From Sphingobacterium siyangense (GTDB taxonomy: Bacteria; Bacteroidota; Bacteroidia; Sphingobacteriales; Sphingobacteriaceae), in NCBI RefSeq assembly GCF_007830445.1, contig NZ_VLKR01000001.1:186001-250000 (forward strand): a stretch of DNA of 64,000 bases, given 5' to 3'. The notes beneath the pieces are model-generated. The model saw only the letters and a list, made by a program, of their open reading frames with translations, ran no database searches and had not been told where the DNA came from. This document shows, one piece after another, positions 47,802 to 52,023 of this stretch. A program made the translations under genes and the position numbers. Numbering within the stretch: position 1 is the stretch's first letter; each line of letters starts with the position of its first letter.

Positions 47802-47846
47802 TACCTATACTGTACCTGTATCGCAAATCTAATCAATCTAAATTTG
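47802..47846 (+). promoter_or_regulatory. Candidate operator (direct repeats) and -7 element of dxs
   Basis: TACCTATA (47802-47809) and TACCTGTA (47813-47820) are direct repeats 11 bases apart, one helical turn, as expected for MocR-type binding. TAAATTTG (47839-47846) fits the -7 consensus, which puts the repeats over the -33 region. The -7 element overlaps the TTG at 47844, so the real start of dxs is more likely ATG at 47859. Confidence 0.5.
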
Positions 47847-47858
47847 TCTAAAAAAGAA

Positions 47859-49811
47859 ATGACAGGTAATTATCAAATCAATAGCCCTAGCGAATTACGT
47901 GCTCTTCCACAGGAGGTATTACCCGAATTAAGTCAGGAACTAAGAAACTTCCTCATTGACCATATTGCTACACATGGCGGTCATTTTAGTTCAAGCCTTG
48001 GTGCTGTAGAACTTACTATAGCAGTTCATTATGTATTTAACACCCCTAAGGATAAATTGATCTGGGACGTTGGTCATCAGGCTTATATCCATAAACTACT
48101 CACAGGGAGAGCGGCTCGCTTCCATTCGAACAGACTTCTAGGCGGCATAAGCGGATTTCCTGTTATGGAAGAAAATAACTTTGACGCCTTTGGTACAGGT
48201 CATTCTTCCACATCCCTATCAGCAATTCTGGGTATGGCCTGCGCAGCCAGGTATAAGGGTGATAACAGCCGTCAACACATCGCTGTTATCGGCGACGGCG
48301 CCATGACTGCCGGTCTAGCATTCGAAGCTTTAAATAATATAGGTTTCGAACAGCCTAACCTATTGATTATATTAAATGATAACGATATGTCTATTGATGC
48401 CGGTACGGGAGCCCTACAAAACTATCTGACCGACCTGACCTCGGGGCAAGCCTATAATCAGTTCAAATCACAGATCAAAAAGCTGCTGTCATCCCATAAA
48501 GATCGGACACAATGGTCAATTGCTGCGATTAGAAAAATAGAGAAATTGATAAAAACAGGGCTATTTGCTTCGAGCAATATTTTCGAGGCCTTAGGAATAC
48601 GTTATTTTGGACCACTGGATGGTCATAACCTCCACAAGCTTATCAAAATATTTGAACAGTTGAAGCATATCCCCGGGCCCAAAATAGTGCATTGTGTAAC
48701 ACAAAAAGGAAAAGGTTTTACACCAGCCATGTTAAACAAGGCGGAATGGCATGCCACAGGGAAATTCGACAAACTGACAGGTATACGGTTAGAAAACCAA
48801 CTACCGCAACTCTACAAGGAAACTTTTCAGCAAGTGCTGGGCGAAACGCTGATACAGCTCGCCCAACATAATAGCCGTATTATCGCTATAAGCCCAGCTA
48901 TGCTTTCCGGCAGCAGGCTGACGGCAATGAAACAGCAGATGCCTAACCGCGTTTTTGATGTTGGTATCTGCGAGCAGCATGCCATTACTTTCTCCGCAGG
49001 CCTTGCTGCTGATGGGCTACTTCCTTTCTGTGTGATCTATTCGACATTCTTACAACGCGCCTATGATCAACTAATCCACGACGTCGCTTTACAGAAATTA
49101 CCGGTCGTGTTCTGTATCGACAGGGCCGGCGTTGTCGGCCCCGATGGCCCCACCCATCAGGGGGCATTCGACATTGCTTTTCTTCGCTGTATACCCAACA
49201 TCGCAGGCGCTTCGCCCATGACGCTCACAGACTTTAAAAATTTGTTGTTCACGGCTCAGGACATCACTCTTGACGGACCGCTTGCAATCCGCTACCCAAA
49301 AGGCCCAGGTGGTCGAGAGAAGCAATCAGACAAATTTATAAGACTTGAAATTGGAAAAGGAAGAAGGCTTTGTTCAGGCCAGGACATTGCCATACTCTCT
49401 CTTGGGCCCGTTGGTCAATATGCACAGGACGCATGCAACGAACTGCTCCGGGAAGGCATGCAGGTTGGGCACTATGATCTACGGTTCTTTAAACCGCTCG
49501 ACGAAGCGTTATTACATGAAGTATTCCAATCATATTCCTATATCATCACTGTTGAAGATGGATGTATAGCTGGTGGAGTAGGAACTGCAGTACTGGAATT
49601 TATGACCGAACATGGCTACTCAGCGACCTTGAAGCGACTTGGCTTGCCCGATACTTTTGCAGTACAGGGTACACAGCAACAGCTTCACCAACTTTATTAC
49701 TACAATAAGCAGGCTATTATCGCCACGGTGAGACAGCTATACACGGGCCCGCTCGAATCGGCAGGCTCAGGGTGTAGCCTTAAGCCGAACGAGTCTTCCC
49801 CAAACAGTTAA
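47859..49811 (+). CDS. dxs: 1-deoxy-D-xylulose-5-phosphate synthase
   Basis: DXS condenses pyruvate with glyceraldehyde-3-phosphate to DXP, the first step of the MEP isoprenoid pathway and a precursor of thiamine and, in DXP-dependent organisms, of pyridoxal phosphate. The protein has about 650 residues from ATG at 47859. Family marks are HIATHGGHFSSSLGAVELTIA, WDVGHQAYIHKLLTGR, the TPP motif GDGAMTAGLAFEALNN with ...LNDNDMSI, ICEQHAITFSAGLA, and the transketolase C-terminal domain (YIITVEDGCIAGGVGTAVLEF). The TTG at 47844 would add 5 residues but overlaps the predicted -7 element. It is divergent from a MocR-type regulator. Confidence 0.93.
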   Translation: MTGNYQINSPSELRALPQEVLPELSQELRNFLIDHIATHGGHFSSSLGAVELTIAVHYVFNTPKDKLIWDVGHQAYIHKLLTGRAARFHSNRLLGGISGFPVMEENNFDAFGTGHSSTSLSAILGMACAARYKGDNSRQHIAVIGDGAMTAGLAFEALNNIGFEQPNLLIILNDNDMSIDAGTGALQNYLTDLTSGQAYNQFKSQIKKLLSSHKDRTQWSIAAIRKIEKLIKTGLFASSNIFEALGIRYFGPLDGHNLHKLIKIFEQLKHIPGPKIVHCVTQKGKGFTPAMLNKAEWHATGKFDKLTGIRLENQLPQLYKETFQQVLGETLIQLAQHNSRIIAISPAMLSGSRLTAMKQQMPNRVFDVGICEQHAITFSAGLAADGLLPFCVIYSTFLQRAYDQLIHDVALQKLPVVFCIDRAGVVGPDGPTHQGAFDIAFLRCIPNIAGASPMTLTDFKNLLFTAQDITLDGPLAIRYPKGPGGREKQSDKFIRLEIGKGRRLCSGQDIAILSLGPVGQYAQDACNELLREGMQVGHYDLRFFKPLDEALLHEVFQSYSYIITVEDGCIAGGVGTAVLEFMTEHGYSATLKRLGLPDTFAVQGTQQQLHQLYYYNKQAIIATVRQLYTGPLESAGSGCSLKPNESSPNS

Positions 49812-50058
49812 GTTAGTCACAATAGTAGTGCTTAAACAATATAGATTAAACTATCATTTGGTCTGATCATAGGATCTAAACAGCAAAGGGCCGACCCTGT
49901 CAGACATTCAGCTTGCGAAGCTTTCCTAAAAGGTCTTTTTGTCAGGACATGCCTTTCATAGATTTACTTCGTCTTTCAATTGTAAAAAGAATCTATAAGA
50001 ACCAAAACTGCTTATATCTTCTAAGACAAACATCCAGAAAGGTACGGTGTTTGTGGCT

Positions 50059-50092
50059 TACATGAAAGAAACAATGTTGTTTCTTTCATGTA
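50059..50092 (+). promoter_or_regulatory. 34-base palindrome before msrAB
   Basis: Arms of 16 bases (50059-50074 and 50077-50092, starting TACATGAAAGAAAC) are perfect inverted repeats around a 2-base centre. It ends 12 bases before the msrAB start. There is no T-run, so it looks more like an operator or a leader hairpin that hides the start region than a terminator. Confidence 0.6.
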
Positions 50093-50104
50093 GCAATTCA
50101 TACC

Positions 50105-51208
50105 ATGAAACACTTATTCGTCCTCCTTGCTATAGCGACAGGCTTATTTCTGATCAGCAAGGTTTGCTTTTCACAAAAAGGGAAAGATTCAAAACCGTCA
50201 ATACAAAATACTATGAATACTATAAATCAAAAAGATCATGTTGTCTATTTTGCCGGAGGATGCTTCTGGGGAACTGAGCATTTCTTTAAACAAGTCCGCG
50301 GGGTCACGGCAACCGAAGTTGGCTATGCCAATGGAAACCTTCAGCACCCTTCATACGCACAAGTTTCGACAGGAACCTCAGGTTTTGCCGAAACGGTAAA
50401 GGTAACCTTCGACCCGGAGCTTGTCGATCTAAAGCTTCTCGTAGACCTTTTCTTCAAAACAATTGATCCAACTTCATTAAATAAACAAGGCAACGATATC
50501 GGTACACAATACCGTACAGGAATCTATTATACCAATGCGGATGATGCCGCTGTTATCAAAGAACAGATAGCTGCTTTAGCAAGTCAATACAACAGCAAAA
50601 TCGTGGTGGAAATAGAACCTTTACAGAATTATTATAATGCTGAAGCTTATCATCAAAAATACCTGGACAAAAACCCTGGCGGTTATTGCCATATAAGCCC
50701 TGATTTATTTAAACTTGCGCGAAATGCCAACCCCGAAAAAGCGAAAGCGGACGTTAAAAACACGTATAAAAAAGCAGATAAGGAGACCTTGAAGAAAGAG
50801 TTGACTACATTGCAATACGATGTTACACAAAACAGTGCAACGGAGCGCGCGTTTGACAATGCCTATAATGATGAATTTAGGGAAGGTATTTATGTCGATA
50901 TCACAACCGGAGAACCCTTATTTGTTTCTACAGATAAATTTGAATCGGGATGTGGGTGGCCCAGTTTTTCCAAACCGATTAGCGATAGCCTGATTCAAGA
51001 ACACTCCGACAATTCGTACGGGATGCGCAGAACGGAAGTACGCAGCAAAACTGGTGATGCACACCTTGGCCACGTTTTTAACGATGGACCGGCAGATAAA
51101 GGTGGTCTGCGCTATTGTATAAACAGTGCTTCACTTCGATTTATTCCAAAAGACAAGATGAAAGCACAGGGTTACGAAAAGTATTTGCCATTATTGGTAA
51201 AAAAATAG
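50105..51208 (+). CDS. msrAB: Bifunctional methionine sulfoxide reductase MsrA/MsrB, exported
   Basis: A 367-residue fusion. An N-terminal signal-like segment ([24 protein letters not shown]) suggests export. MsrA follows with catalytic Cys53 in [12 protein letters not shown] and motifs GYANG and [13 protein letters not shown] linker (about residues 205-230) leads to MsrB with [25 protein letters not shown] and catalytic Cys338 in [11 protein letters not shown]. The MsrB part lacks the zinc-binding CxxC pairs seen in many members. Together they reduce both S- and R-methionine sulfoxide, here likely to protect periplasmic proteins from oxidation. A strong palindrome precedes the start. Confidence 0.94.
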
Positions 51209-51267
51209 GCTGCAGCGCCTCATTGGAGGCGCTTGCTCTGAACATTTCAGAATCCTTCAGGCTACCC

Positions 51268-52023
51268 TTATAATAACCTATTATTCAATGCAAAAACCAA
51301 TGCTTCATTCATGTTGCTTACCCCTAGCTTTTCAAATAATTTTCGCCGATGAAATTTCACCGTATCAATGGAAACGAAAATTTTCTCCGAAGTTTCATGA
51401 ATGGTCAGACCTCGATGATAAAAACGTAAAATCTCTATTTCACGTTCGGTAAGATTAATCTTTTTCTGGGAGTTCCATTTCCCAGTCAACAGATCCAATT
51501 CCCATACTAAGTTGGAGTGCAACTTTTCGATAGTCACGTTACCTGAAGATATATTAGTGGATAAAGACACGATACAAATTGCTTTCCATATTTTCCCCTC
51601 TTCTGTCAAAAAAACAGGTGTCAGTTTATGATTAATTAAAATAAACTTGTTGTGTGCATTTTGTATCTGAAAATCATACGATATAACATAAAGCTTCCGT
51701 TCCTCAATGGGTATTTTTTCATAAAAGCTAAACCCCGCTTCGTTAATCTTAATGAGCATCTGGAAATCATCAGATGGAACATATTTTTGATAAAAGCCAT
51801 AGCCCATTTCCATCACCTCTTTGGCTGTTAAACCAGCTAGAAACAGCGGGTTGTCTGAAACAAACTCAAAACTTTTAGCTTGGTAATCGATTAGGTAAAT
51901 ACTCTGATAAGTAATCCGTGAGAAGGCTTTGACGAGCTCAATATAGCCGTGGGTCTGCTGGATGTCCTTTTCTGAAAGACGATCAACAGTATTTTTTTGT
52001 GAAAATAGCGCGTTAAAATCCAT
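51268..52023 (-). CDS. PAS-LuxR type transcriptional regulator
   Basis: A 251-residue protein. Residues about 35-175 resemble a PAS-type sensing domain (SIYLIDYQAKSFEFVSDNPLFLAGLTAKEVMEMGYGFY). The C-terminal 62 residues are a LuxR/GerE HTH: LTEREIEILRFYHRGLTIHETSEKIFVSIDTVKFHRRKLFEKLGVSNMNEAL, with the T-V-K-x-H recognition helix. No receiver domain is present. It is convergent with msrAB and divergent from the DUF5694 gene, which could be its target. Confidence 0.9.
   Translation of the reverse strand: MDFNALFSQKNTVDRLSEKDIQQTHGYIELVKAFSRITYQSIYLIDYQAKSFEFVSDNPLFLAGLTAKEVMEMGYGFYQKYVPSDDFQMLIKINEAGFSFYEKIPIEERKLYVISYDFQIQNAHNKFILINHKLTPVFLTEEGKIWKAICIVSLSTNISSGNVTIEKLHSNLVWELDLLTGKWNSQKKINLTEREIEILRFYHRGLTIHETSEKIFVSIDTVKFHRRKLFEKLGVSNMNEALVFALNNRLL

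What the first reader, a model, noticed from the sequence alone, without database searches (positions are those of the whole stretch)
50059..50092. Strong palindrome just before exported msrAB
Perfect 16-base arms with only two central bases end 12 bases before the start codon. This is larger than common operators, and as RNA it would make a hairpin next to the ribosome site. It could be a redox-regulated operator or a translational switch.
Basis: partly seen in the sequence, partly recalled or inferred. Interest (0 to 1): 0.5.

Follow-up and report, generated by a model that had tools for sequence, protein, structure and literature searches.

The report
5'-end hairpin of msrAB mRNA
In a Sphingobacterium and three sister species, the messenger RNA for an exported methionine-repair enzyme probably begins with a perfect 16-base-pair hairpin that may protect the message from decay or tune its use; the kind of element is known, but its function here is untested.

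Summary
The palindrome is real: perfect 16-nt arms, 2-nt centre, 50059-50092, ending 12 nt before the msrAB ATG of a Sphingobacterium genome. It is a one-gene cis element: no second copy in the genome (up to 3 mismatches), and among 199 genomes searched it is found in 4 closely related species (own included), each time 12 nt before msrAB, with 34 of 34 bases identical while the far upstream DNA differs by 19-24% between the two lineages. It is not a terminator. Comparing 30 msrAB loci shows a promoter unit just upstream: block B (mostly GTCTTnnnATTGTAAAAAGA) and a -7-like block C ending TTTG, 58-60 nt apart in the 19 loci that have both, while the distance to ATG varies. With the published Flavobacterium spacing, transcription would start at about 50058, the base of the hairpin. 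Best reading: a 5'-terminal mRNA stem-loop like those of ompA, papA and vacA, shielding the 5' end from decay. Against it: six further orthologues have shorter or weak hairpins, share a sequence core (AACAATnnTGTT) and show no significant covariation, so a DNA operator remains open; the start site is unmapped. Nothing links it to redox control. Modest interest; new member of a known kind.

The parts
50059..50092 (+). Perfect palindrome, 16-nt arms, 2-nt centre; inferred 5'-terminal stem-loop of the msrAB mRNA (predicted +2 to +35)
50070..50081 (+). Core AACAATnnTGTT at the middle of the palindrome (50070-50075 and 50078-50081 invariant) in the ten nearest orthologues
50058..50058 (+). Predicted transcription start (inferred, 50058 or 50059, from the F. 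johnsoniae spacing of 4-5 nt after the -7 element); pairs with G50093 as U-G, as C-G in G037
50041..50053 (+). Block C, GGTACGGTGTTTG: -7-like promoter element (50046-50053 GGTGTTTG; seven orthologues have the consensus TATCTTTG)
49971..49990 (+). Block B, GTCTTTCAATTGTAAAAAGA: conserved upstream element, possible activator site at about -87 to -68; ends 59 nt before the TTTG
49933..49945 (+). Block A, GTCTTTTTGTCAG: further conserved block; its TTTGTCA starts 41 nt before the ATTGTAAAAAGA of block B in the ten nearest orthologues
50105..51208 (+). msrAB: MsrA-MsrB fusion (PF01625 + PF01641), 367 aa, signal-like N terminus
47844..49811 (+). Upstream co-directional gene: DXP-synthase-like (PF13292, PF02779, PF02780); its stop lies 247 nt before the palindrome

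Best explanation
The palindrome is a 5'-terminal stem-loop of the msrAB messenger RNA. Shown: the perfect inverted repeat, its identity in four species, and its place directly after a conserved promoter-like unit. Inferred: transcription starts at about 50058 from block C, so the 47-nt leader begins with a 16-pair hairpin (lowest pair U-G 50058/50093) with essentially no free 5' nucleotides, followed by 11 unpaired nucleotides and AUG. Inferred from established cases: a base-paired 5' end hinders pyrophosphate removal (RppH-type enzymes) and 5'-end-dependent RNase E/G cleavage, so the message lives longer, while the bare stretch before AUG leaves the ribosome site open. It would be a constitutive stabiliser or tuner of one mRNA, not a switch.
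For: Promoter unit: block B to the TTTG of block C is 58-60 nt in 19 of 19 loci having both, of 30 loci examined, while the leaders inferred from block C vary from 28 to 92 nt in those 19, so block C behaves as promoter and not as leader. In seven of them (G034, G084, G090, G077, G022, G042, G038) block C holds TATCTTTG, the Bacteroidetes -7 consensus. In F. johnsoniae that element spans -12 to -5 (passages of PMC6847099), as in F. psychrophilum (passages of PMC9723704); this gives +1 at about 50058. Palindrome identical 34 of 34 in four species, while between the two lineages 30-37 of 154 bases at -290..-137 and 27-36 of 143-144 fourfold sites differ. Leader z -7.0 to -8.6 in those four. The pair 50058/50093 is U-G in three species and C-G in G037. 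One RNase E/G gene in the genome. [quoted passage not shown] pylori cut mRNA half-life 1.6-fold, and a mutant with pairing restored was like wild type (passages of PMC4843948).
Against: The start site is not mapped. Block C here (GGTGTTTG) lacks the nearly invariant TA and has G at -9, where F. johnsoniae has virtually none. Outside the four species the structure is shorter or weak: leader z -0.83, -1.36, -2.12, -1.38, -0.88 and +0.26 in the other six nearest orthologues. Over the ten (9 distinct rows) 78.6% of cells pair, against 43.5-50.4% with slid partners, but shuffles reach it in 51 of 500, the covariation score in 75 of 500, and the number of pairs changed on both sides (2) is at shuffle level, reached by 459 of 500. 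RNAalifold keeps 6 inner pairs of the palindrome and adds 10 pairs between block C and the bases before AUG; 0 of 16 has a two-sided change. Those 10 outer pairs would belong to a longer transcript, against my start site. The core is kept in sequence, as a protein site would be. The spacer between B and C also changes slowly (6-8 of 47 differences across the lineages), which makes 0 of 34 less striking. RppH was not searched for.
Confidence: 0.48

Rival explanations
1. DNA operator: a dimeric regulator binds the palindrome over the first transcribed bases (+2 to +35) and controls the promoter; the conserved core AACAATnnTGTT is its main contact.
For: The core is invariant in sequence in the ten nearest orthologues and the outer arms are not; no significant covariation. 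Position just downstream of the -7-like element suits a repressor.
Against: No second copy in the genome within 3 mismatches. The core pattern AAGAAAC-N6-GTTTCTT within 2 mismatches gives 63 places against 87 for the reversed control; only msrAB matches without mismatch. TTTG plus ACAATnnTGTT gives 11 places against 1 for the reversed control, but of the ten others 9 lie inside ORFs of 80 aa or more and none has such an ORF start within 150 nt downstream. The gene next to it upstream is DXP-synthase-like, not a divergent regulator; the regulator-like proteins nearby are MocR-type and LuxR-type with unknown targets. A 34-bp perfect palindrome is longer than most operators need (recalled).
Confidence: 0.25
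2. Translational control: the hairpin next to the ribosome site lowers initiation; or it hides out-of-frame AUGs (50062, 50088) in the stem; or, in a longer transcript, block C pairs with the bases just before AUG and closes the start site.
For: Structure within -20 to +20 tunes initiation in F. johnsoniae and stray AUGs near starts are under-represented in Bacteroidetes (passages of PMC6847099). Three out-of-frame AUGs lie in the leader, by the fold two in the stem and one in the loop. With block C included, GGUGU pairs with AUACC before AUG, and the consensus fold of ten has 10 such outer pairs, several kept in 10 of 10 by G-C to G-U changes.
Against: With the inferred start the last 11 nt before AUG are unpaired. 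The rigid B-C distance and variable C-ATG distance argue that block C is promoter, not leader. No outer pair has a two-sided change. The leaders of G069 and G075 contain no upstream AUG (rows).
Confidence: 0.12
3. Mutational by-product: a weak ancestral inverted repeat was turned into a perfect one by a template-switch (quasipalindrome correction) event in the ancestor of four species and has little function.
For: G078, G069 and G075 have a 9-pair version at the same place, and the four species differ from them mostly in a few bases of the outer arms. The mechanism is recalled.
Against: 34 of 34 bases stay identical in four species while far upstream bases differ by 19-24% between the two lineages.
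Confidence: 0.1
4. Terminator of the upstream transcript.
For: It is an inverted repeat downstream of a co-directional gene.
Against: No T run on either side, not in the terminator list, a conserved promoter-like unit lies between.
Confidence: 0.02

Closest known systems
5'-terminal stem-loops that stabilise mRNA (E. coli ompA and papA, seen as reference titles; H. pylori vacA, passages)
   Same: Predicted stem-loop at the 5' end of one gene's leader with a free stretch before the start codon; acts in cis.
   Different: Perfect 16-pair, A/U-rich stem (74% A+T) in a Bacteroidota leader; start site and half-life effect unproven.
Bacteroidetes housekeeping promoter (-33 TTTG / -7 TAnnTTTG)
   Same: Block C ends TTTG; seven orthologues match TAnnTTTG exactly at the same distance from block B.
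   Different: In this genome TA is replaced by GG, and I saw no -33 TTTG at the usual distance (read by eye); a fixed-distance upstream element suggests an activator.
PM2 promoter motif of Bacteroides thetaiotaomicron (near-palindromic, genes enriched for oxidative stress; passages of PMC7366714)
   Same: Near-palindromic sequence near start sites of stress genes.
   Different: PM2 elements lie at -10 and -30, upstream of the start; this palindrome lies downstream of the -7-like element. The PM2 sequence was not seen, so not compared.
Dimeric repressor operators overlapping +1 (recalled)
   Same: Dyad symmetry next to a promoter.
   Different: Single site in the genome, 34 bp, no cognate regulator found.

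Membership tests
5'-terminal mRNA-stabilising stem-loop | Stable stem-loop predicted in the leader RNA | tested here: met
   z -7.7, 0 of 300 shuffles as stable
5'-terminal mRNA-stabilising stem-loop | Begins at or within a few nucleotides of the transcript's 5' end | tested here: inconclusive
   Predicted +1 at about 50058 from block C and published spacing; not mapped
5'-terminal mRNA-stabilising stem-loop | Structure kept in relatives through compensatory changes (supporting, not strictly defining) | tested here: not met
   No significant covariation over ten orthologues
5'-terminal mRNA-stabilising stem-loop | Loss of pairing shortens mRNA half-life, restored pairing rescues it | not testable with these tools
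   Needs bench work
Intrinsic terminator | G+C-rich stem followed by a U run | tested here: not met
Regulon operator | Same site before other genes | tested here: not met
Known Rfam leader or riboswitch | Match above a family's gathering score | tested here: not met
   One sub-threshold hit in 49700-51400, 20.4 bits against 50, downstream of the palindrome
Bacteroidetes sigma-A promoter (block C) | TAnnTTTG at -12 to -5 | tested here: inconclusive
   GGTGTTTG here; TATCTTTG in 7 orthologues at 58-60 nt from block B

The most novel reading that the evidence does not exclude
The element acts twice: as DNA, its conserved core over about +13 to +24 is bound by an envelope-oxidation regulator working with block B; as RNA, the hairpin formed by the perfected arms protects the 5' end, so one palindrome couples induction of msrAB to message survival. 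This would be a dual DNA/RNA leader element.
Probability: 0.07. Interest if true: 0.6.

Novelty: new member of a known kind. Interest (0 to 1): 0.3.

Why it matters
Bacteroidota lack Shine-Dalgarno sequences and use their own promoters, and 5' leader control there is little explored. A single-gene, 34-base perfect hairpin that begins at an inferred start site is a clean test object for whether 5'-terminal structure stabilises mRNA in this phylum. The conserved promoter-like unit found on the way is a testable lead to how exported MsrAB is controlled.

Tried and rejected
Terminator: rejected. Repeat family or mobile element: no other copy in the genome within 3 mismatches. Rfam leader: none above threshold. 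Regulon site: palindrome core (63 places against 87 reversed); TTTG plus core (11 against 1 reversed; ten others looked at, 9 inside ORFs, none before an ORF start); block B (7 places within 2 mismatches; 69 within 3 against 54 reversed, not examined one by one); block C (94 places within 3 mismatches against 71 reversed). Of the block C near-copies, five of the ten loci given (L177-L180, L183) were read and none sits before a gene start as at msrAB. The six other exact ATTGTAAAAAGA places were read; none was seen before an msr-like gene. A long-leader model in which block C pairs with the bases before AUG is kept as part of a rival, not excluded. An upstream reading frame from 50062 (71 aa) was set aside because its ATG is missing in G069 and G075. 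Other msrAB copies or more distant msrAB genes of the genus: 13 further places were fetched and read by eye; no comparable hairpin was seen, no scan was run. Of the 63 loci found, 16 were taken for an upstream scan of 150 nt: 15 had an ATG to anchor on, and only L082 showed arms of 8 or more, placed at -80 to -58. In one search minus-strand loci had been read in the wrong direction; one search replaced it and no number is taken. Paper searches (listings only) showed no title or abstract about this element; one search found no paper.

Full report
What is there. The palindrome at 50059-50092 is exact: 16-nt arms and two central bases, 12 nt before the ATG of a 367-codon gene for a MsrA-MsrB fusion (PF01625 6.4e-62, PF01641 7.2e-48) with a hydrophobic, signal-like N terminus (read by eye). 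Chance does not give it: about 1.4e-4 such repeats are expected in 64 kb, and 15 Markov-simulated windows had longest arms of 9-14. Of seven inverted repeats with arms of 11 or more in the window it is the second longest; it has no T run on either side and is not among the terminator-like sites. The 60 nt before msrAB are the most structured of 53 ORF upstream regions.

Whose genome. The window lies in a 6.29-Mb genome of 71 contigs.

Distribution. Up to 3 mismatches, the genome holds only this copy. Of 199 genomes searched (93 of the genus, own included), 4 have the palindrome pattern within 2 mismatches: G000, G037, G055 and G087, each with the palindrome 12 nt before the msrAB start. In these four the 34 bases are identical, while between the G000/G087 and G037/G055 lineages 30-37 of 154 bases at -290..-137 and 27-36 of 143-144 fourfold codon sites differ. 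At a 24% rate, 34 unchanged bases would have a chance of about 1e-4; at the 13% rate of the spacer between B and C about 1e-2 (my arithmetic). Constraint is likely but not overwhelming.

Promoter footprint. msrAB relatives were found in 93 of 93 genomes of the genus (many are only MsrA-like or distant); 30 loci came with DNA and all 30 upstream regions were printed and read. In 19 of 30 two blocks are present: B (ATTGTAAAAAGA, with a one-base variant in G086 and G022, preceded by GTCTT in 16 of the 19) and C (GG[TCA]AnnnTnTTTG). From B to the TTTG of C is 59 nt in 13, 58 in 5 and 60 in 1 of the 19, whereas the leaders inferred from C range from 28 to 92 nt. Five more loci have C without B and six have neither. 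Rigid spacing between B and C and loose spacing to ATG is how a promoter with an upstream regulator site behaves (inference). In G034, G084, G090, G077, G022, G042 and G038 block C holds TATCTTTG, the Bacteroidetes -7 consensus TAnnTTTG. In F. johnsoniae the final G is at -5 (passages of PMC6847099), so here +1 is about 50058, the base just before the palindrome. Caveat: in this genome the element is GGTGTTTG, without the nearly invariant TA and with a G at -9 that is virtually absent in F. johnsoniae.

Structure in the leader. From that start the leader is 47 nt and folds as one 16-pair hairpin from its first base, -19.1 kcal/mol, z -7.7; the other three species give z -7.0, -8.6 and -8.1. 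The lowest pair is U-G (50058/50093) in G000, G087 and G055 and C-G in G037. The last 11 nt before AUG stay free. In the next six orthologues the hairpin is shorter (G079, G069, G078, G075) or weak (G091, G060), z from -2.1 to +0.3. Pair counts over ten orthologues beat slid partners but not shuffles: 51 of 500 for cells paired, 75 of 500 for covariation. The consensus fold keeps six inner pairs of the palindrome and adds ten pairs between block C and the bases before AUG, none with a two-sided change; those ten would need a transcript that starts upstream of block C. What all ten share is a sequence core AACAATnnTGTT. By eye, G079 can pair GATA with TATC where others pair GAAA with TTTC if a one-base shift is allowed; a single case, not counted.

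Is it a regulon site? The core pattern is no commoner in the genome than its reversed control (63 against 87). TTTG followed by ACAATnnTGTT is commoner than its reversed control (11 against 1), but of the ten places other than msrAB nine lie inside ORFs and none stands within 150 nt before an ORF start. Blocks B and C are close to their controls (69 against 54; 94 against 71).

Mechanism. The position, at the inferred 5' end with a free stretch before AUG, matches 5'-terminal stem-loops that protect mRNAs (ompA, papA: recalled; titles seen in a reference list). B. subtilis RppH needs at least two unpaired 5' nucleotides (passage of PMC3997798). In H. pylori, breaking the vacA leader stem-loop lowers half-life 1.6-fold and a mutant with pairing restored is like wild type (passages of PMC4843948). 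The genome has one RNase E/G gene. I therefore favour mRNA protection, at 0.48. An operator at +2 to +35 is the main rival (0.25), because the core is kept in sequence and not by covariation. Translational control, including a long-leader form, has 0.12; a palindrome perfected by template switching with little function 0.1; a terminator 0.02. Redox control has no evidence either way.

Verdict. It is a lineage-restricted, single-gene leader hairpin, a new member of a known kind, of modest interest.

Noticed in passing
49971-49990 and 50041-50053: Conserved upstream element (block B) and -7-like block C at a 58-60 nt spacing before msrAB in 19 of 30 Sphingobacterium loci, with no clear regulon elsewhere in the genome. 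The TCTT-N11-AAGA symmetry of block B recalls LysR-type sites (recalled, untested).
   Followed up: partly
692-753: A perfect 62-nt palindrome (31-nt arms, no loop) with A and T runs inside the arms, downstream of an ORF at 180-662; single copy in the genome within 3 mismatches; probably a bidirectional terminator (inference).
   Followed up: partly
50062, 50074, 50088: Three out-of-frame ATGs in the msrAB leader, the last directly followed by TAG (start-stop), in a phylum in which AUGs near starts are under-represented.
   Followed up: partly
L099-L105 (G078, G055, G037, G075, G069, G091, G060): A second msrAB copy, 75-77% identical to the query, in seven of the same genomes, with a different upstream region. 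The window's own genome has instead a 79% match to the MsrB half only at G000:C15:5705-6199.
   Followed up: partly
47844-49811: DXP-synthase-like gene, TTG start as called; whether it is a second dxs of the genome was not checked.
   Followed up: no
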